Positions 1,771 through 22,655 of a stretch of 32,579 nucleotides of DNA are shown piece by piece. Positions within the stretch are counted from its first letter, which is position 1. The number at the start of each line of letters is the position of its first letter. The notes beneath the pieces are model-generated. The model saw nothing but the letters and a program-made list of their open reading frames with translations, was not told the DNA's origin and made no database searches. The stretch is from Gemmataceae bacterium (GTDB lineage Bacteria > Planctomycetota > Planctomycetia > Gemmatales > Gemmataceae): NCBI GenBank assembly GCA_003136315.1, contig PLDW01000068.1:10592-43170 (forward strand), given 5' to 3'. Position numbers and translations under genes: made by a program.

Positions 1771-1788
1771 CGGCACACCCTTTGCTTG
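1771..1788 (+). promoter_or_regulatory. Sigma-54 (-24/-12) promoter, copy 1
   Basis: The sequence GGCACACCCTTTGCTTG has GG at 1772-1773 and GC at 1784-1785, separated by exactly ten bases, with GGCAC and TTGCT flanks that match the RpoN consensus TGGCAC-N5-TTGCT. The identical 17-base block precedes the paralogous ORF on the minus strand at 22638-22654. Transcription would start near 1797, giving a leader of about 60 bases before ATG 1856. Sigma-54 promoters need an ATP-driven enhancer-binding activator, so this unit is probably signal-dependent. Confidence 0.75.
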
Positions 1789-1855
1789 CTCTCTTTCACC
1801 AGGCAAATGAAGAAATCTTCCCACTCGGTCACCACAAGCTATCGAGGGCCATACC

Positions 1856-1993
1856 ATGCAGACGACCCACGTCAAAAACGATGAGTTGTCCCGGATCGCT
1901 CCCCTCAATACCCCGAACCTCCCAATTTTGGTCGAGGACACCGACACCGCCGACCTGATCGATCTGTGGAGGGATCTCGGCGGCAGCGACTGA
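1856..1993 (+). CDS. MQTTH-family micro-protein, copy 1 (45 aa)
   Basis: A short ORF of 45 residues that begins MQTTHVKNDELSRIAP, continues through NTPNLPILVEDTDTADLIDL and ends WRDLGGSD. It aligns with a second ORF at 22438-22569 (minus): both start MQTTH, share ELSR, PNL, a D-rich stretch and LWR followed by an acidic residue, and end in GS plus one residue. Differences between the copies include synonymous third-position changes (CAG/CAA, ACC/ACT), as expected of a translated sequence. The peptide is acidic, has no signal sequence or membrane helix, and contains no motif I know. It is the only ORF of a short unit with a sigma-54 promoter upstream and an intrinsic terminator about 46 bases after the stop. 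No convincing SD lies before the ATG; GAGGG sits about ten bases upstream in both copies. An alternative is an RNA gene in which the ORF is secondary. Confidence 0.65.
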   Translation: MQTTHVKNDELSRIAPLNTPNLPILVEDTDTADLIDLWRDLGGSD

Positions 1994-2038
1994 CCGTGTA
2001 ACCCTTTCACTCCGGCTGACAACCCTCGTGTATGTCTT
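1994..2038 (+). ncRNA. Conserved 3' UTR segment of the micro-gene unit, copy 1
   Basis: Between the ORF stop and the terminator hairpin, about 40 of 45 bases match the corresponding segment of copy 2 (22392-22437, minus strand). Shared blocks include CGTGTAACCCTTTCAC and ACAACCCTCGTGTA. This non-coding stretch is more conserved than the ORF, which points to an RNA-level function such as a processed 3' small RNA or a protein-binding site. The function is inferred, not shown. Confidence 0.5.
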
Positions 2039-2069
2039 ACCCACCAGCCCGTCTGGTGGGTTCTTTTTT
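2039..2069 (+). terminator. Intrinsic terminator of micro-gene unit, copy 1
   Basis: A nine-base-pair stem ACCCACCAG/CTGGTGGGT (2039-2047 and 2053-2061) with a five-base loop is followed by a T-rich tract (TCTTTTTTA). The tract is on the plus strand, which fixes the direction of transcription of this unit. Confidence 0.9.
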
Positions 2070-12207: not shown

Positions 12208-15200
12208 CTACGGCTCTTTCGGTTCCCCCGGGCGAGCGCCAAAACCTGGGGGGAGGCGAAGAATCTCCGGATCGAGAATGAAGAGTTGTCGTTTGCCGGG
12301 CAACTCGGCGGCATCAATGAAAACCTTGTCCCGCTGGCGGAACACCTCGACCACTGCGCGAGCAGCCAACCGCGATTCGATGAAAAATCGCCGCTCGGCC
12401 AACAACCGGCTCCGACGGTCGGCGATGTCCCGATCCACTGCCTCGGGATTTTCCTTCCGCTGTTTGATGCGCATCGACCGCTCGGTGGTCAGTGCGTCCT
12501 CCTCCTCCGGCGTGAGCTGAGTCCGAGCGCGATGCCAGGCCAAAAAGGCATTACTCGTGGCCCTGGCGTCCACGGTTTGCCTGTGGGACTCTGTCTCGGC
12601 CTGGCGGATGACCCGCTCGACCTCCTCTTCCTTCCGGCGGCGAGCCCGTGTGGCGTCGCCCTCGGCCTCGTTCACGAGTCGATCGCGTTCCTGGATCGCT
12701 TTCGCAACAGCGTGATACTCCGACACGACCTCCGGCGGGGGGTGCAGGTCGTGGAGTGTGAATCCATCGAGCCGGACCCCGACCCCACCAGGGGCGACCT
12801 CGGCTAGCCGGTGGCCCAGGCGAGCGAGCGCGTCCCGCTCCAACCCCGCCCGGTAGACCGTGAGCAACTCCAGAAATCGGTGCCCAGCAACCAGTTCGCG
12901 AAGCACCGATTCCGCCGCCGATCGAATCACTGCGTCCGGATCCGCGACTCCAAACAAATACCTCCGCGGTTCGTCGATGCGATACCGGACAGTGGCCAGG
13001 ATCTCGACCAGATCTCCGTCGCCGGTGATCATCACGGCCTCATCTGTCAATCGGGCGATACCCTCAGCGTGTGAGCTTGACCACCCCAGCCCGGCATCCG
13101 ACCCACCAGGACGGCGAACCCGGCTTGGTTCGGGTGGGCTGGGCAAGCCGACCGCTCTCTGGTCGTCGGTCAGTCCCCGGAACCCGACCTCGACGGTGCG
13201 AATCTCACCAGGTCGCAGACGGGTCACCGTTTCCACCGGCCACGGCCAGCGCGTATGCAATCCCGGCCCCAGGTCCGCAACCACGGCCCCAAACCGCCTG
13301 ACGATACCCACCTCCCCAGCCTCCACCTGGACGAGTCCAGAGGCGAGCCACCCAAGGACGGCGACAACCCCCACGACCCAGGTGATCGGCTTCCACCGGT
13401 GGGTGATCGCGTGGAGCACATCGTCGAGGTGAACGGTATTCAGCCAGCGGTCAAACGCGATGGTCGAAGCCCGGATATGCGACAGGGTCGGGCTCGTTGC
13501 AACCCTCTCGAACCCGAGCAATCGCATGGAATTGAGCAAGACGAGCAACGAGCCGAGTTGGTGATAGAGCGCGCCGACGAGTGGAGCTTTCTCATACCAC
13601 CCCGGCGCAGTTGCGACAACTGGCCAGATCCACCCGGTGAGGACGATCCCGACGAGATTCACTCCGAACCCGAACACAAGGATATTCTGGCGGATGACGC
13701 GGACCATTTCGCGGGAGAGTCGGACCAGCAACGGGAGCGGTTTCAAGGGTTCGCCCATCAAGACGATGTCCCCGGCCTCGGCAGCGACATCCGTCCCTGA
13801 CCCAATCGCGATCCCAACCCCAGCCCGGGCCAGGGCTGGAGCGTCGTTGATCCCGTCGCCTACGAAAGCGGTTTGAGGTTTCGAATCTCGCGTTTCGCGC
13901 TCTGATGGCTGTCTGGGGTTGGATCGCTCCTGGGAAGCGGACGATTCAAATGTCGAGACCCACTCCGACTTCTGCGCAGGCAGCAATTCGGCGTGGACCT
14001 CCGTCAACGGAAGTTGCTCGGCCACGGTCCTGGCCACCGCCGCTCGATCGCCAGTCAGAAGGGTGATGGACGCAATCCCGATTGCCCGGAGATCCGCGAG
14101 TACCTGAGCAGCCTCAGGACGGACGCGGTCGCGGGCTCCGATTCCGCCGAGGATCACACCGTTTCGGGCAACCAGAAGTGAGGTCTGGCCGGCCGCATCC
14201 AGTCGGTCAAGGAGTGTGATCGCCTCCGGGGAGACGGCAATGCCCTGCTCTTCGAGGAGTCGGCGCGTGCCAACCACGATTGTCGATCCGCCAACCGTGG
14301 CCGTTACCCCACCGCCAGGCTGCGCCTGGAAGGTCTCGACCGCCGGGACGGTGAGGTGGCGGGCTGCCGCTTCCCGGAGGATGAGCTGGGCGAGTGGGTG
14401 TTCGCTCCGCTGCTCAGCGGTCGCGGCAGCGGAGAGAACCTCCTCGGCGGTCGCGGAACAGAGCCCGATGACCTCGCCGAGTTCGAGCTTGCCCTCGGTC
14501 AGGGTTCCGGTTTTGTCGAAGGCGAATGCGGTGACACCAGCCAGGCGTTCGAGTGCCGCTCCGCCCTTGATAAGTACCCCCGTCCCGGCAAGTCGGCCGA
14601 GTGCTGCAATCACCGCTGCCGGGGTGGCCAGGATCAACGCGCACGGGCAAGCCACGACCAGCACCCCAAGGGCGGGGTAGGCGGCAACCCGGGCGGCGGC
14701 ATTCCACCCCGGCCTGGGGATGCCGGGGGGCGGCGACCCGCTCATCTGGTAGAGGACATTGCCGACGAACGTGAGGAGGGTGAGGGCGAGCACAGCCGGG
14801 AGGAAATACCGGGCGAGTCGGTCGGCGTGGCGTTCGAGGGGAGCCTTGTCCTTGAGGGCCGCAGCGGTCAGTTCAAGAATCTGCCCAGCGACTGTCTGCT
14901 TCGCGACCTTCTTCGCCTCAACGGTCACGGACCCGTCCACGACAATGCTACCGGCGAGCACCTCGTCTCCGGTCCCTTTTTCCAACGGCAGGCTTTCCCC
15001 GGTGAGGGCCGACGCATCCACCGCCGAGCGGCCGTCGACCACCACCCCATCGACTGGCACCCGCCCCCCGGGCTTCACCACCACCCGATCACCGACCAGA
15101 AGGTCGGCCGTGTAAGTGCGAACTTCCTCTCCGTCGCGGAGAACCCAGCAGCGGCTGGGGAAGAGTTCGGCGAGTTTCCCAAGAGCCCGCTGGGTGCGCG

Positions 15201-15582
15201 CGAAGGTGTAAGCCTCCAGACACTCCCCTGCGAGGCCGATGAAGACCACCTCGGCGGCAACGAGTTCTTCCCGGAGGATGATCGCAGCGAGGCAGGCAAC
15301 GGCAAGAGCGAGGTCGGCTCCGATCCGGCCCTCAAACAGACTTTCGAGGGAGTTGTAGAGCACACGGGCACCGCCAATGACGGCAGCGATTAGCGCGAAG
15401 CGATAACCGAAGAGTTGCGGGGTCCAGGAGAACGTCTCAACACCCTGACCCTTGAGCCACCCGGCAAGAAGCGGCCACAGGTCAGCAGCGAGGAGGACAC
15501 CGACAAGGCTCGTCAGAGCGTAAAGCCCGAGCGGCGCACCGCTCCGGAAAGGGTCATCGGAGGTGTTCAGATCGCGGTGCAT
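12208..15582 (-). CDS. P1B-type metal-transporting ATPase fused to an SPFH/band-7 (HflK-like) domain
   Basis: A 1,124-residue two-part protein in one uninterrupted frame. Residues about 15-700 are a heavy-metal P-type ATPase: TGES (194-197), the membrane CPC metal site (312-314, VACPCALILATPAA), DKTGTLT (356-362), SEHP (393-396) and GDGINDAP (575-582). It has no N-terminal HMA domain. Between the P-domain LLPAQK and the GDGIND loop sits a polar insert (about 540-571, rich in S, E, R and P). After the ATPase, a new membrane segment (about 732-750, ITWVVGVVAVLGWLASGLVQ) starts an SPFH domain (VEAGEVGIVRRFGAVVADLG, PGLHTRWPWPVETV), followed by a charged coiled coil (about 960-1080), as in HflK. 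CPC suggests Cu, Zn, Cd or Co export; the specificity cannot be set. The SPFH part may cluster or stabilise the pump in the membrane. No separate hflC follows. Confidence 0.9.
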   Translation of the reverse strand: MHRDLNTSDDPFRSGAPLGLYALTSLVGVLLAADLWPLLAGWLKGQGVETFSWTPQLFGYRFALIAAVIGGARVLYNSLESLFEGRIGADLALAVACLAAIILREELVAAEVVFIGLAGECLEAYTFARTQRALGKLAELFPSRCWVLRDGEEVRTYTADLLVGDRVVVKPGGRVPVDGVVVDGRSAVDASALTGESLPLEKGTGDEVLAGSIVVDGSVTVEAKKVAKQTVAGQILELTAAALKDKAPLERHADRLARYFLPAVLALTLLTFVGNVLYQMSGSPPPGIPRPGWNAAARVAAYPALGVLVVACPCALILATPAAVIAALGRLAGTGVLIKGGAALERLAGVTAFAFDKTGTLTEGKLELGEVIGLCSATAEEVLSAAATAEQRSEHPLAQLILREAAARHLTVPAVETFQAQPGGGVTATVGGSTIVVGTRRLLEEQGIAVSPEAITLLDRLDAAGQTSLLVARNGVILGGIGARDRVRPEAAQVLADLRAIGIASITLLTGDRAAVARTVAEQLPLTEVHAELLPAQKSEWVSTFESSASQERSNPRQPSERETRDSKPQTAFVGDGINDAPALARAGVGIAIGSGTDVAAEAGDIVLMGEPLKPLPLLVRLSREMVRVIRQNILVFGFGVNLVGIVLTGWIWPVVATAPGWYEKAPLVGALYHQLGSLLVLLNSMRLLGFERVATSPTLSHIRASTIAFDRWLNTVHLDDVLHAITHRWKPITWVVGVVAVLGWLASGLVQVEAGEVGIVRRFGAVVADLGPGLHTRWPWPVETVTRLRPGEIRTVEVGFRGLTDDQRAVGLPSPPEPSRVRRPGGSDAGLGWSSSHAEGIARLTDEAVMITGDGDLVEILATVRYRIDEPRRYLFGVADPDAVIRSAAESVLRELVAGHRFLELLTVYRAGLERDALARLGHRLAEVAPGGVGVRLDGFTLHDLHPPPEVVSEYHAVAKAIQERDRLVNEAEGDATRARRRKEEEVERVIRQAETESHRQTVDARATSNAFLAWHRARTQLTPEEEDALTTERSMRIKQRKENPEAVDRDIADRRSRLLAERRFFIESRLAARAVVEVFRQRDKVFIDAAELPGKRQLFILDPEILRLPPGFGARPGEPKEP

Positions 15583-15687: not shown

Positions 15688-18501
15688 TCAGCGGTTGACC
15701 AACCGGTCCCACACGCGGGTGATACGGCCGCGGGGGCTGGCGGACACCCGCCCCCCGGCCAGCCAGGCTCGGATATCGTCGGCCAGAGCCGCGGCCGTCG
15801 GATACCGGTCCTCCGGTCGCAAGGCCATTGCCTTGGAGCAGATCGCATCGAGATCCGGCGGGATTGCAGGGTTCACCTCCCGCGGGCGGCGAATCTGGCC
15901 GGTTAGTACAGAAGTTAGAGCATCCCGAAGATCGTCGACCTCAATCGCATATTGACCGGTCAGGATGAAAAAGAGGCTACCTCCGAGAACGTAAATGTCG
16001 CTTCGTCGATCGACTCGGGCTGCGTCGGTCGCCTGCTCTGGAGACATAAATCGGGGTGTGCCCATCACCGCTCCAGTATGAGTCAGGTCGGTTGCACCGG
16101 GGACGACTCCCTGGACTTCTAGTAGCTCCGCTGAATCGTTCGATCGACCTTCGGATCCGCCAGGGAGAAGGTTTCCCATCACCTTTGCTATCCCCCAATC
16201 GAGCACCACTGCCGAGCCATCCGATCGGATCAGGATGTTCGCGGGTTTGGGGTCCCTGTGGATGACCCCCTGCTCGTTGGCGTAGTGGATGGCGTCGCAA
16301 ACCTGGGCCAGAATGTGGAGTAGTCGGGTGAAATCTGCATTCGTGCGACGGGGCATACCGCCACGGGCGTGGAACGCTGTGGCCGCGACGGATAAGTTCT
16401 TCCCCGCGATGTACTCCATCACGATGAAAGGGTGTCCAGTGCTCCCGTGGACTCCGTAAGTGTAGACCACAACGATGTTCGCGTGCCGGAGGTTCGCCAT
16501 CACTTGCATCTCGCGAAGAAACCGAGTTTTCTCCTGTCGACTGGCACGATCGTTCAATTCCTTGATCGCGACCAGCCGACCGAGGGCATTGTCCCGGGCC
16601 AGGATGACTCGTCCGATCCCGCCACGACCAAGCTGCTGGACGGGCGTATAGCCTTGAATAAATTCTGGCTCACCAACCTGCCGACCTACCGAGGTCAGTG
16701 GGAGGTTTGTCTCGGTCCAGTCTGGCTGATCCGGTTCTGCTGGGCGTGTTGCAAAAGGATGGGCAGTGTGATCATGCGCTGCAGGAAGCCGCGACCCAGC
16801 GTAGGGTGTGGGTGGAGCCCCAACCCGTTCGGCGGGTGAGATCACCCGCGGCAACGCAACCGCAGTATTCTCCAACTTCGGAGGGCTCGGATCGGAGGGG
16901 TCTTGGACGGCGGTCAAAGCGTCGGCGGGGGCGTTCGGCGGGGCGGCCACGCTTTCGCGGGGTGGGGGTTGGGCCGGAGCGGCTCGCGTTCGCATGATCG
17001 TGGCGATGTTCGTCTTGTATTCGTCCGGGTGGGCTGCGATCAGCCCGCGATACATGGCCGCAGCCTTCTTCTCGTATTCGGCCGCTTCCGTCGCCTTCCC
17101 GAGCTTCTCGGCTGACTGGGCAAGGGCGATGTAGCAGTTCGCCTCCTCAGCCTGAAAGCGCGGTTGGGAGGCGTAGTCGGTGGAAAGATCCGCGAACATT
17201 TGCGCGGCATCGATAAACCAGTGGATCGCATCGTCGTCCCGCCCCATTCCACTGAGGATATGTCCGAGGTTCACGCACTGGCGGGCGACATGCTCGGCCA
17301 TCGCATGGTCCTTGCTATTCCCCTCCCGCCACTGGCTCCGCAGCGCCATCACAGCCGCCCGTTGGGCTGCAGCGGGTTGGTCGGCGAGCCACCGTTCGAC
17401 CGCGTCCGCCATCGCGATCGTGGATGCGAACCGCTCACCTGAGTTCAGGGCCAAGGCTTTCAGCACGATCGCTTCGAGCACGTCGTCTGCCAGCGGTCGG
17501 GCTGGCAGGTCTTCGCTCTTGGAAGTGAACGGACGGCGGACGGCCTTCGGGCTGGTCGGTGGGCGATCGCGACTTCCGTCCGGGTAAGGGGGCTGGCCAG
17601 TCAGGATCTCGAACAAGATGCCACCCAGCCCGTAAATGTCTGTCCTCTCGTCCTGCTCGGCGGGGTGGCCGGGGATCTGTTCCGGAGCCCAGTACAGCGG
17701 GGTTCCGCCTTTCGTCATGGTCACGGCGGCTTCATCGACTGGCTCAAAGACGGGCTCGGGTGCCACATTGGCCTCACCAGGTCCGGCGCGCAAGCGCCGG
17801 GCCAAGCCCCAGTCGATCACCAGGGTTTCTCCGAACGGCCCGAGCATGATGTTCTCGGGCTTCAGGTCGCGATGGATCACCCCCTGGCTATGGGCGTACG
17901 CAATCGTCTGACAGACGCTGAGGAACCGGGACAGCAGACCCCGGAAGGCGACGGCTTGCTCGGTAATCGTCAGCGGGGCCGATGGCCGACCCAACCCGCC
18001 AAACGCATGAAACCCACGAATTGCGTCCCGCAGTGTCTGCCCGGCGATGAACCTCATCGCGTAGAATGGCCGACCGGTCGGATGCCGGCCCAACCCGTAC
18101 ACCGGGACGATCCCCGGGTGTTCCAACCGTCCGGTGACTTCTGCCTCGAAGAGAAATCGCTCTCGATGTGCCTGAACGTCGGCCAGGTGATCGCGGATTT
18201 CCTTGAATGCAACCTCCCGGTGGAGCTCCACGTCCAGCGCCACGGACACCTTCCCCATACCCCGTTCGCGGTGCTCTCGAAGGTGCTGGAATCGCGGCCG
18301 GGGGGGACCATCCCAGGGAGGCGGCTCAATTGGTTCGCCGCTCGGGTGCTTTGTCTGGGTCTGACCGTCCGGGTCCACCCGCGGGGGTGTCTGAGTGCCC
18401 GTCGGCACACCAGATGTGGGGTGGTCCTCGGCCGCTCCTGACGAATCCGTTGCCAGTGGTGGCATCACGGACTCGGTAGGTTGTGAATCGGTGCATGCCA
18501 T
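15688..18501 (-). CDS. Double Ser/Thr protein kinase with a central helical region
   Basis: A 937-residue protein with two Hanks-type kinase domains. The first (about 70-375) has K100 (VAFKE), HRDLKPEN (210-217), DWG (230-232) and APEQ; its glycine loop is degenerate (HRERGMGKV). The second (about 617-920) has an intact loop LGRGGIGRV, K647 (VAIKE), HRDPKPAN (748-755) and DWG (768-770), then SPEQ. The usual HRDLK is HRDPK in the second domain. DWG instead of DFG is usual in planctomycete kinases. Residues about 385-500 look like TPR-type helices (DDAIHWFIDAAQMFADLS, AEEANCYIALAQSAEKLG), and about 505-600 are a proline-rich linker. No transmembrane helix was seen, so it is probably cytoplasmic. 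The target is unknown. It is followed by the ATPase gene about 105 bases downstream. Confidence 0.9.
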   Translation of the reverse strand: MACTDSQPTESVMPPLATDSSGAAEDHPTSGVPTGTQTPPRVDPDGQTQTKHPSGEPIEPPPWDGPPRPRFQHLREHRERGMGKVSVALDVELHREVAFKEIRDHLADVQAHRERFLFEAEVTGRLEHPGIVPVYGLGRHPTGRPFYAMRFIAGQTLRDAIRGFHAFGGLGRPSAPLTITEQAVAFRGLLSRFLSVCQTIAYAHSQGVIHRDLKPENIMLGPFGETLVIDWGLARRLRAGPGEANVAPEPVFEPVDEAAVTMTKGGTPLYWAPEQIPGHPAEQDERTDIYGLGGILFEILTGQPPYPDGSRDRPPTSPKAVRRPFTSKSEDLPARPLADDVLEAIVLKALALNSGERFASTIAMADAVERWLADQPAAAQRAAVMALRSQWREGNSKDHAMAEHVARQCVNLGHILSGMGRDDDAIHWFIDAAQMFADLSTDYASQPRFQAEEANCYIALAQSAEKLGKATEAAEYEKKAAAMYRGLIAAHPDEYKTNIATIMRTRAAPAQPPPRESVAAPPNAPADALTAVQDPSDPSPPKLENTAVALPRVISPAERVGAPPTPYAGSRLPAAHDHTAHPFATRPAEPDQPDWTETNLPLTSVGRQVGEPEFIQGYTPVQQLGRGGIGRVILARDNALGRLVAIKELNDRASRQEKTRFLREMQVMANLRHANIVVVYTYGVHGSTGHPFIVMEYIAGKNLSVAATAFHARGGMPRRTNADFTRLLHILAQVCDAIHYANEQGVIHRDPKPANILIRSDGSAVVLDWGIAKVMGNLLPGGSEGRSNDSAELLEVQGVVPGATDLTHTGAVMGTPRFMSPEQATDAARVDRRSDIYVLGGSLFFILTGQYAIEVDDLRDALTSVLTGQIRRPREVNPAIPPDLDAICSKAMALRPEDRYPTAAALADDIRAWLAGGRVSASPRGRITRVWDRLVNR

Positions 18502-18692: not shown

Positions 18693-19694
18693 TCAAGCAT
18701 CCACGAGGCGTGTGAGGGCCTTTCGGGCGTTCTCCTGGCCCTGAGCAGCCGCCATCCAATACCACGCTATTGCAGTGGCTCGATCCTGCGTCACTCCCCT
18801 GCCGTTCTCGTACATCTGGCCGAGGTTGTATTGGGCGGTGCTGTCGCAGAGATCTGCGGCCCTGCGTAACCACTCAAGAGCCTTCCCGTCGTCCTGGTCT
18901 ACTCCCCGGCCGTCCCGGTACATCAGGCCGAGGTTATTCTGCGCGCTGGCGATCCCGAGTTCCGCGGCCTCCCGATACAACTCGACGGCCTTGGCGTCGT
19001 CCTGCGGCACGCCTGCACCTTTCTCGTGGCAGACCCCGATCAGCAGCATTCCAATAGGGTGTTTCCGAGATGCCGCGCGTTGCCACTCCGCGAGCCGGGC
19101 GGAGGCCGCCTCGATCAGGTAGGGTGCTGTCGAGCCGCCTTTTGCACGATGTCGATCGTACTCTTGCAAAGCGGTCTGGAGTTGCTCGTCTTCCCGGATC
19201 ATCACCTGATCCAGGACGGTCGATGTGCTGGCAACCAGGAGGTCGTCGAGACCGTGGATGAGTCGGTTCATATCGCTATGGAAGTCCGGATCTCGGCGAA
19301 CCTCCAACCCGTTCCGGAAGGCCAACTCGCAAAGCGAGTCGGGGAGTTGGGTGGGTTTGGGCATCCCGGCCCGGCTGACAAGCACTGGGATCACCGGGAT
19401 GTCGCGGGTGAGGGCGGTCTCGATCTCCAGCCGGACGAAATCGAGTGGGTCGTCGAGCCGACGGCCCCCGTCCTCACCGGTCACCGTTGCCCAGCTTGGG
19501 CCGATGACAGCCAGCAGTACTTGACAGTCTTCGACGGCCTTTCGGATCACCTTGCGGAAGTCGCAACCGAGCGGGATCACATCCACGTCGCGGAAGAGTA
19601 CCTTCTGGTCGAAGTGCGCGCGGAGGCGGTCGAAGATACGGCCGGTCACATCGGCCGAATCGTCCCTGCGGTACGAAACGAATACCTTGGTCAT
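18693..19694 (-). CDS. TIR-domain protein with Sel1-like repeats
   Basis: A 333-residue protein. Residues 1-135 are a bacterial TIR domain: MTKVFVSYRRDDSADVTGRI, FDRLRAHFDQKVLFRDVDVI, LLAVIGPSWATV, then LDFVRLEIETALTRDIPVIP. The glutamate in RLEIETAL is at the position of the catalytic Glu of NAD-cleaving TIRs. A linker follows, and the C-terminus (about 220-333) carries three to four Sel1-like repeats, e.g. DAKAVELYREAAELGIASAQ NNLGLMYRDGRGV and TAQYNLGQMYENGRGV. TIR domains in bacteria act as NADases in immunity or as protein-interaction modules; Sel1 repeats are protein-binding scaffolds. ATG 19694 starts directly at the TIR strand; the longer frame to 19796 adds nothing. It lies between rho and a double kinase; no defence partner gene is adjacent, so a signalling role is as likely as an antiphage one. 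Confidence 0.88.
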   Translation of the reverse strand: MTKVFVSYRRDDSADVTGRIFDRLRAHFDQKVLFRDVDVIPLGCDFRKVIRKAVEDCQVLLAVIGPSWATVTGEDGGRRLDDPLDFVRLEIETALTRDIPVIPVLVSRAGMPKPTQLPDSLCELAFRNGLEVRRDPDFHSDMNRLIHGLDDLLVASTSTVLDQVMIREDEQLQTALQEYDRHRAKGGSTAPYLIEAASARLAEWQRAASRKHPIGMLLIGVCHEKGAGVPQDDAKAVELYREAAELGIASAQNNLGLMYRDGRGVDQDDGKALEWLRRAADLCDSTAQYNLGQMYENGRGVTQDRATAIAWYWMAAAQGQENARKALTRLVDA

Positions 19695-19834
19695 GGGATG
19701 CGACGGTGTGAGGGCAACGGATGTGTGGTCACAGCCTGTTTCAGATTGTACCCTCTCCCAGGATGCGAGGACCAAGCGGACCTCCACGACAGCCAACTCC
19801 GGCCTGCTATCGCTCCCGGGCCGATCGCTCCGCT

Positions 19835-22362: not shown

Positions 22363-22391
22363 TAAAAAAACCCACTGGATCGGCCAGTGGG
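22363..22391 (-). terminator. Intrinsic terminator of micro-gene unit, copy 2
   Basis: On the minus strand an eight-base-pair stem CCCACTGG/CCAGTGGG (22384-22391 with 22371-22378) with a five-base loop is followed by seven T residues. Its sequence and position relative to the ORF match copy 1 at 2039-2069. Confidence 0.92.
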
Positions 22392-22437
22392 CAAGAGGTA
22401 CACGAGGGTTGTAAGCTGTGGTGAAAGGGTTACACGA
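22392..22437 (-). ncRNA. Conserved 3' UTR segment of the micro-gene unit, copy 2
   Basis: This is the counterpart of 1994-2038. It shares CGTGTAACCCTTTCAC and ACAACCCTCGTGTA with copy 1 and runs straight into the terminator. The high identity over non-coding sequence suggests selection at the RNA level or recent duplication; the more diverged ORF argues against simple recency. Confidence 0.5.
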
Positions 22438-22569
22438 TCAGTTGCTACCGCTGACTTCACGCCACAGATCGGCCAGGTCGTAGGTCTCCCCGGTGCGATC
22501 GTGGAGGTTCGGGCAACCGTCATCGGCCAGTCGGGACAGCTCTTCGATTTCCATGTGAGTCGTTTGCAT
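22438..22569 (-). CDS. MQTTH-family micro-protein, copy 2 (43 aa)
   Basis: A 43-residue ORF that begins MQTTHMEIEELSRLADDGCP, continues NLHDRTGETYDLADLWREVS and ends GSN. It is the paralogue of the ORF at 1856-1993: same MQTTH start, same ELSR, PNL and DL-DLWR blocks, same GS ending. The peptide is acidic and soluble with no known motif; one cysteine is present here but not in copy 1. It has its own sigma-54 promoter about 70 bases upstream of the ATG, and a terminator about 46 bases after the stop. A 15-codon ORF (ATG at 22618, MKGSPDLANSISRGL) in the leader ends two bases before the ATG, which may couple translation. Confidence 0.65.
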   Translation of the reverse strand: MQTTHMEIEELSRLADDGCPNLHDRTGETYDLADLWREVSGSN

Positions 22570-22637
22570 CCTTACAGCCCTCGCGAGATTGAGTTGGCCA
22601 GGTCGGGAGATCCCTTCATCCGCCCGGCTCTTGTGGT

Positions 22638-22655
22638 CAAGCAAAGGGTGTGCCG
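22638..22655 (-). promoter_or_regulatory. Sigma-54 (-24/-12) promoter, copy 2
   Basis: On the minus strand GGCACACCCTTTGCTTG has the -24 GG (22653-22654) and the -12 GC (22641-22642) ten bases apart, identical to copy 1 over 17 bases. The distance from the GC to the ORF start is 71 bases, equal within a base to copy 1. The start of transcription should be near 22630. Confidence 0.75.

What the first reader, a model, noticed from the sequence alone, without database searches (positions are those of the whole stretch)
1771..2069. Dispersed sigma-54-driven micro-gene family: promoter, 43-45 aa ORF and terminator as one module
Seen: two units, 1771-2069 (+) and 22363-22655 (-), share an identical 17-base block with perfect -24/-12 geometry, equal spacing from the -12 GC to the ATG (71 bases), homologous MQTTH...DLWR...GS ORFs, and a conserved 3' end with terminator. 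Established: sigma-54 promoters require an enhancer-binding activator and are rarely found by chance with both elements conserved. Inference: this is a regulated family of micro-proteins or dual-function RNAs not covered by common annotation because the ORFs are under 50 codons and one is antisense to a longer spurious ORF.
Basis: partly seen in the sequence, partly recalled or inferred. Interest (0 to 1): 0.85.

Follow-up and report, generated by a model that had tools for sequence, protein, structure and literature searches.

The report
Tiny sigma-54-driven proteins in Gemmataceae
The window holds two copies of an apparently undescribed family of tiny protein genes, each a self-contained unit with its own stress-type promoter and stop signal, found so far only in one family of water and soil bacteria; what the proteins do is not yet known.

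Summary
Two homologous units, 1772-2069 (+) and 22654-22364 (-), each carry a sigma-54 -24/-12 element, an SD, a 45- or 43-codon ORF and a terminator whose stem covaries. They are the only promoter-bearing copies found in this genome, but 21 further units turned up in 11 related Gemmataceae genomes. The shared core is LxRLADDGCP[HN]. In a promoter-blind test 20 of 23 distinct motif ORFs have a sigma-54 site scoring at least 9/11 within 130 nt, against 3 of 181 other genes. dN/dS within subtypes A and B is 0.09-0.51, so the family is translated and constrained; the window pair is relaxed (about 0.9) and unit 1 has lost the Cys motif. Other strict sigma-54 sites in two of these genomes precede GroEL, GroES and small stress-type genes, so a sigma-54 stress regulon is likely. 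Subtype A adds a leader hairpin with a CsrA-like GGA loop. No usable Pfam, NCBIfam, PHROGs, Rfam or PDB match. The role, a soluble peptide docking on a partner, is inferred only; no activator site was found. New protein family, known kind of gene.

The parts
1772..1785 (+). unit 1 sigma-54 element GGCACACCCTTTGC (-24 GG, -12 GC)
1797..2069 (+). unit 1 predicted transcript (start placed 12 nt after the -12 GC)
   Evidence: inference from sigma-54 geometry; no TSS data
1844..1848 (+). unit 1 Shine-Dalgarno-like GAGGG
   Evidence: sequence; similar purine-rich stretch before the start in many homologues by eye
1856..1993 (+). unit 1 ORF, 45 aa, diverged paralogue without the ADDGC motif
2039..2069 (+). 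unit 1 intrinsic terminator
22641..22654 (-). unit 2 sigma-54 element GGCACACCCTTTGC
22364..22629 (-). unit 2 predicted transcript
   Evidence: inference from sigma-54 geometry
22578..22582 (-). unit 2 Shine-Dalgarno-like GAGGG
   Evidence: sequence
22438..22569 (-). unit 2 ORF, 43 aa, with family core ELSRLADDGCPN
22364..22391 (-). unit 2 terminator hairpin and T run, stem covarying with that of unit 1
   Evidence: read from sequence

Best explanation
Each unit is a stand-alone gene for a small soluble microprotein. An enhancer-binding activator responding to stress remodels sigma-54 RNA polymerase at the -24/-12 promoter (inferred from the promoter and from the other genes that carry it); a roughly 270-nt mRNA is made and, in the window copies, ends at an intrinsic terminator (anatomy shown, transcript inferred); a 27-71 aa, mostly acidic peptide is translated from an SD-led start (translation supported by codon statistics). 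The peptide, a short helix ending in LADDGCP followed by a variable linker and in many members a second DLxxLW helix, most likely acts by binding a partner protein through the LxRLADDGCP core during stress (inferred, weakest step). In the window, unit 2 is the typical copy and unit 1 a relaxed, diverging paralogue.
For: Homologues: 13 of 149 genomes at E<=0.1 with one sequence; 21 of 95 Gemmataceae genomes with the profile at E<=0.1, the weakest likely chance; 23 clean units in 12 genomes counting this one. Promoter-blind test: 20 of 23 distinct motif ORFs score >=9/11 for TGGCACGN4TTGC within 130 nt, versus 3 of 181 other called genes, 53 of 4000 random segments and 14 of 2300 shuffles. dN/dS 0.17-0.51 in 20 of 21 pairs of 7 subtype A members (one dS undefined) and 0.09-0.41 in 15 of 15 pairs of 6 subtype B members. 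Subtype A homology starts at the promoter and ends near the 3' hairpin except between close relatives. Stress regulon: strict sigma-54 sites 14 in this genome (reversed control 4) and 10 in G047 (control 5); 16 of the 24, the two window units included, have a plausible start by eye; of 10 downstream proteins sent to Pfam, Cpn60 twice, Cpn10, DUF2171, BrkB and (barely) the YflT heat-stress domain pass the cut-off, YtxH twice and Transgly_assoc fall below it, one has no hit. One RpoN in each of 3 genomes; 23, 17 and 21 activator-domain matches in G000, G004, G047. A published PSSM study also reports sigma-54 enrichment of GroEL/GroES in Planctomycetia (PMC12316311, passages seen).
Against: No expression or mutant data. 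The window pair has dN/dS about 0.9 and its 3' UTR is better conserved than its ORF. 8 of 24 strict sigma-54 sites have no clear gene. No activator site shared by 17 of these promoters. Subtype A 3' hairpins mostly lack a T run, and L070, L077 and L078 have weak hairpins, so termination there is less sure. The other five genomes of the same genus show no clean copy, so the gene is dispensable. Structure models are weak (pLDDT 80.6, pTM 0.35 alone; 66.4 and 0.25 with an alignment).
Confidence: 0.6

Rival explanations
1. The unit is chiefly a sigma-54-dependent regulatory RNA (sRNA or CsrA sponge); the ORF is secondary or the RNA is dual-function.
For: Subtype A leaders start with a hairpin near the predicted 5' end with ARGGAYA in the loop region; the leader pattern has 7 matches in 5 of 10 genomes (reversed control 0) and by coordinates all 7 lie in microgene leaders. 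CsrA has 4, 6, 5 and 4 matches in the four genomes tested. In the window pair the 3' UTR is more conserved than the ORF.
Against: Purifying selection on codons in subtypes A and B. The leader pattern is absent from this genome and, at 3 mismatches, also misses the subtype A copy of G047; subtypes B and C do not show it. No Rfam match in the window or six loci. The GGA loop as a CsrA site is recalled, not tested.
Confidence: 0.15
2. A precursor of a modified secreted peptide (RiPP-like), with LADDGCP as leader recognition motif and a variable C-terminal core.
For: Conserved N-terminal half, variable C-terminal half. An uncharacterised protein family lies within 7 kb of 6 of 7 subtype B units and of none of the other 15 neighbourhoods.
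Against: That family stands at varying distance and strand, has no Pfam or NCBIfam match above cut-off and also occurs in two unrelated held loci (L036, L117); subtype A has no such neighbour. C-terminal parts are not rich in Cys, Ser or Thr by eye.
Confidence: 0.06
3. A small mobile or repeat element carrying a promoter, spread by transposition.
For: Dispersed copies; subtype B homology reaches about 200 bp upstream of the promoter. One of four units examined (L076) is flanked by a 10-nt inverted pair.
Against: Edges in subtype A and in the window coincide with promoter and 3' hairpin; the other three units examined show no flanking inverted repeat; coding constraint; few copies per genome.
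Confidence: 0.04
4. Type I toxin of a toxin-antitoxin pair.
For: Small ORF with its own promoter and terminator.
Against: All 25 rows have negative GRAVY and the window copies have pI 4.17 and 4.27, unlike membrane toxins (recalled). An antisense RNA was not searched for beyond one sigma-70 scan of unit 1, whose single minus-strand site (1755-1728) lies outside the ORF.
Confidence: 0.03

Closest known systems
Sigma-54 (RpoN) chaperone/stress genes of Planctomycetia (Carrera-Reyna et al. 2025, PMC12316311; passages seen)
   Same: Same promoter class; two genomes here also have sigma-54 sites before GroEL, and G047 before GroES.
   Different: The study works with COG groups; the passages I saw (12 of 28 places) mention no unannotated microprotein.
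Small stress-induced bacterial proteins under 50 aa, e.g. YohP (PMC12719787; title and abstract start in a search listing)
   Same: Size; probable stress regulation.
   Different: YohP is a membrane protein; these are hydrophilic by composition.
Sigma-54-dependent small RNAs such as CrcZ, GlmY and Qrr (recalled)
   Same: Short sigma-54 transcript ended by a hairpin.
   Different: Here the ORF is under coding selection.

Membership tests
Sigma-54 regulon gene | -24/-12 element with GG-N10-GC at promoter distance | tested here: met
   20 of 23 distinct motif ORFs at score >=9/11, promoter-blind; two score 8, one none. The 23 units were extracted by requiring the site.
Sigma-54 regulon gene | RpoN and enhancer-binding activators in the genome | tested here: met
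   1 RpoN match in each of 3 genomes; 23, 17, 21 activator-domain matches
Sigma-54 regulon gene | cognate upstream activator site | tested here: inconclusive
   no spaced word above shuffles in 8 and 9 upstream regions
Sigma-54 regulon gene | transcription lost in an rpoN mutant | not testable with these tools
   needs experiment
Small stress-induced microprotein | short translated ORF with coding constraint | tested here: met
   dN/dS below 0.52 in 35 of 36 within-subtype pairs of 13 members, one undefined; but about 0.9 for the window pair
Small stress-induced microprotein | induction by stress | not testable with these tools
   only guilt by shared promoter
CsrA-bound leader or sponge RNA | GGA in hairpin loop | tested here: inconclusive
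   GGA invariant in 7 subtype A leaders aligned; not shared by window unit 1
RiPP precursor | maturation gene nearby | tested here: inconclusive
   none for subtype A or the window; an uncharacterised family near 6 of 7 subtype B units
Type I toxin | hydrophobic membrane peptide | tested here: not met
   negative GRAVY in 25 of 25 rows, which are 23 distinct units

The most novel reading that the evidence does not exclude
LxRLADDGCP[HN] is a transferable docking motif of Gemmataceae: the microproteins are stress-induced stand-alone copies of it that compete with longer proteins carrying the same motif near the C-terminus for a common partner, and in subtype A the same transcript also titrates or is gated by CsrA, making a two-output sigma-54 stress switch.
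Probability: 0.12. Interest if true: 0.75.

Novelty: new variant of a known kind. Interest (0 to 1): 0.55.

Why it matters
It gives a probable sigma-54 stress regulon in a little-studied group of bacteria a family of conserved, unannotated microproteins with a clear promoter handle. Gemmata sp. IIL30 carries two of them; Gemmata has cultured strains (recalled), so rpoN dependence, stress induction and binding partners can be tested directly. It also shows that looking for promoter, ORF and terminator together can recover genes too short for the protein libraries searched here.

Tried and rejected
Shared activator site: no enriched spaced word in 17 of the 24 strict sigma-54 upstream regions. 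Partner gene: clustering of ORFs in 22 neighbourhoods gave, beyond synteny between close relatives, a kinase family in 7 neighbourhoods, a response-regulator family in 6, and one uncharacterised family in 6 of 7 subtype B neighbourhoods and 0 of the other 15 (Fisher p about 9e-5, chosen after seeing the clusters). I first took that family for an abundant one from memory; tblastn over the DNA held finds it also in L036 and L117, so it is not confined to subtype B, but the association is unexplained. An oxidoreductase lies near window unit 2 and near one G047 unit. Separate spread of the 3' UTR: only the two window copies match well in six genus genomes. Fold: none of 47 PDB matches reaches E<=0.001. 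Homologues outside the family: class search 16 of 397 genomes, all listed as family f1; phylum draw 1 of 392, the window's own genome, the known carriers evidently not being drawn; genome-contig scan 7 loci, of which L129 and L130 are other-frame chance matches without a promoter. Print: searches for Gemmata with sigma-54, small ORFs and transcriptomes, for RpoN with small proteins, for sigma-54 with CsrA, and for the string ADDGCP gave no description of the family (listings only, except passages of PMC12316311).

Weak profile hits set aside after inspection: those without the DDGC core or an open frame. Two of the 25 rows (L027, L035) repeat L066 and L079 and were dropped. In one search, 7 of 9 subtype A and 6 of 8 subtype B members were compared; subtype C was not.

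Full report
Observation. The two units are as described. Coordinates refined: GG of the -24 element at 1772 (+) and 22654 (-); ORFs 1856-1993 and 22569-22438; predicted starts about 1797 and 22629. GG-to-ATG distance is 84 and 85. The homologous block of the pair runs from 10 bases before the promoter to the terminator. The terminator stems differ by two paired changes that keep pairing (C-G to T-A, A-T to G-C; read). Within the window alone the promoter consensus with one mismatch is not above chance (3 found, 2.1 expected); the case rests on the homologues.

Copies. The window's genome (11.6 Mb, 524 contigs, 92.5% complete) has two complete units (4 hits at E<=10, two of them units; a third hit at E 0.0016, a frame with RLSDDGCPN but no promoter). 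A single-sequence search gave hits in 13 of 149 genomes at E<=0.1; the 13-row profile 21 of 95 family genomes at E<=0.1, several of the weak ones probably chance. Reading the loci gave 23 clean units in 12 genomes: 2 here, 3 in G047, 3 in G081, 2 in G152, 4 in G068, 2 in G090, 2 in G084 and 1 each in G037, G054, G089, G150 and G075 (25 rows with 2 repeats removed). All hits of the class search are in family f1 (16 of 397); the phylum draw hit only the window's genome (1 of 392). A scan of the genome collection for R[LM]ADDGCP matched 100 stretches, 7 confirmed, of which 5 are genuine and 2 chance. The genuine ones are Gemmata sp. IIL30 (two), Gemmataceae bacterium CJuql4 and two Planctomycetota MAGs.

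Anatomy of the family. Core: D-[DE]-L-x-R-L-A-D-D-G-C-P-[HN], with variants. Subtype A, about 43-48 aa, mostly ends DLsaLWaaLGKDD...; subtype B, 27-35 aa, often ends DLWLDLGGSD; subtype C, 69-71 aa, ends DSGxIRxW; the window pair stands between A and B. Window unit 1 has APLNTP in place of ADDGCP. The window and subtype A and B peptides are acidic (L070 is near neutral, pI 6.05); subtype C is basic. GG-to-start spacing is 52-86. Each unit has a 3' hairpin, but in subtype A it is mostly not followed by a T run, and L070, L077 and L078 have weak ones.

Is the promoter real? Extraction required a sigma-54 site, so I repeated the test blind to it: every distinct ORF with the motif in the held loci was taken and its 130 nt upstream scored against TGGCACGN4TTGC with GG and GC required. 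20 of 23 score 9 or more, two score 8, one has none. Controls at 9 or more: 3 of 181 other called genes, 53 of 4000 random segments, 14 of 2300 mononucleotide shuffles. Unit 1 lacks the motif and is not among the 23. Copies are related, so these are not independent events.

Is it translated? Among 7 subtype A members dN/dS is 0.17-0.51 in 20 of 21 pairs (one dS undefined), among 6 subtype B members 0.09-0.41 in 15 of 15; window unit 2 against two A members 0.41-0.54; the window pair 0.9. The family is coding and constrained; unit 1 is relaxed. Against a purely coding reading, the window pair's 3' UTR is its best conserved segment (63/80 against 90/132 for the ORF); that 3' UTR has no other good match in six genus genomes.

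Neighbourhood. In 22 neighbourhoods no gene recurs beside subtype A or the window units apart from synteny. One uncharacterised family (PILADALQDAGC) lies within 7 kb of 6 of 7 subtype B units, at varying distance and strand, and of none of the other 15 (p about 9e-5, post hoc). It has no Pfam or NCBIfam match above cut-off and occurs in two other held loci. Whether this reflects function or shared variable islands is open.

Regulon. The strict pattern GGCACRNNNNTTGCWT occurs 14 times in this genome and 10 times in G047, against 4 and 5 for the reversed pattern. By eye 16 of the 24, the two window units included, have a plausible start: 15 at 38-91 nt and L080 at 116; 8 do not. Ten downstream proteins were sent to Pfam: Cpn60 (both genomes), Cpn10, DUF2171, BrkB and, just, YflT above cut-off; YtxH twice and Transgly_assoc below; one none. 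Two response regulators were recognised by eye only. A published PSSM study reports the same GroEL/GroES enrichment in Planctomycetia (PMC12316311, passages). I therefore place the microgenes in a sigma-54 stress regulon; this is inference from a shared promoter.

RNA. Subtype A mRNAs would begin with CCGGGSACGCARGGACACGCTGCCCGG or a variant, a hairpin with GGA in the loop region. With up to 3 mismatches the pattern occurs 7 times in ten genomes (five of the ten; the ten are 10 of the 12 with units), all in microgene leaders, reversed control 0. CsrA has 4, 6, 5 and 4 matches in G000, G004, G047 and G068. CsrA control is a lead, not a finding.

Function. No NCBIfam, PHROGs, Rfam or PDB sequence match, and in Pfam only Nod_GRP at E 0.14, below cut-off. 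AlphaFold gives two short helices, with lower confidence with the alignment than without, and no PDB fold match. The commitment to a soluble docking peptide rests on composition and the invariant core and is the weakest step.

Lead. A motif like RLADDGCP also lies near the C-terminus of four longer frames (L155, L160, L161, L162), one of them in this genome; whether those frames are genes is untested.

Noticed in passing
window 12208-15582 (-): One 1124-aa frame joins an E1-E2 P-type ATPase with its HAD domain to a C-terminal SPFH/Band 7 domain; the fusion looks unusual.
   Followed up: partly
window 18693-19796 (-): TIR domain fused to Sel1 repeats, beside a protein with two kinase-domain matches at 15688-18501 (-).
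   Followed up: partly
L062, L064, L065, L071, L073, L076: An uncharacterised family ending PILADALQDAGC... lies within 7 kb of 6 of 7 subtype B microgenes and of none of 15 other neighbourhoods; no Pfam or NCBIfam match above cut-off.
   Followed up: partly
L155, L160, L161, L162: RLADDGCP-like motif near the C-terminus of longer open frames; L161 lies among phage-like genes by eye.
   Followed up: partly
L098 1592-1714: Another sigma-54-preceded 41-aa ORF in G047, hydrophobic by eye, no Pfam match: perhaps a second microprotein family of the regulon.
   Followed up: no
G000, G004, G047, G068: 4-6 CsrA matches per genome, many for a regulator that is usually single (recalled).
   Followed up: no
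L061, L062, L064, L065, L071, L073, L076, L034: About 70-200 bp upstream of the subtype B promoter is conserved among dispersed copies, a candidate activator-binding region.
   Followed up: partly
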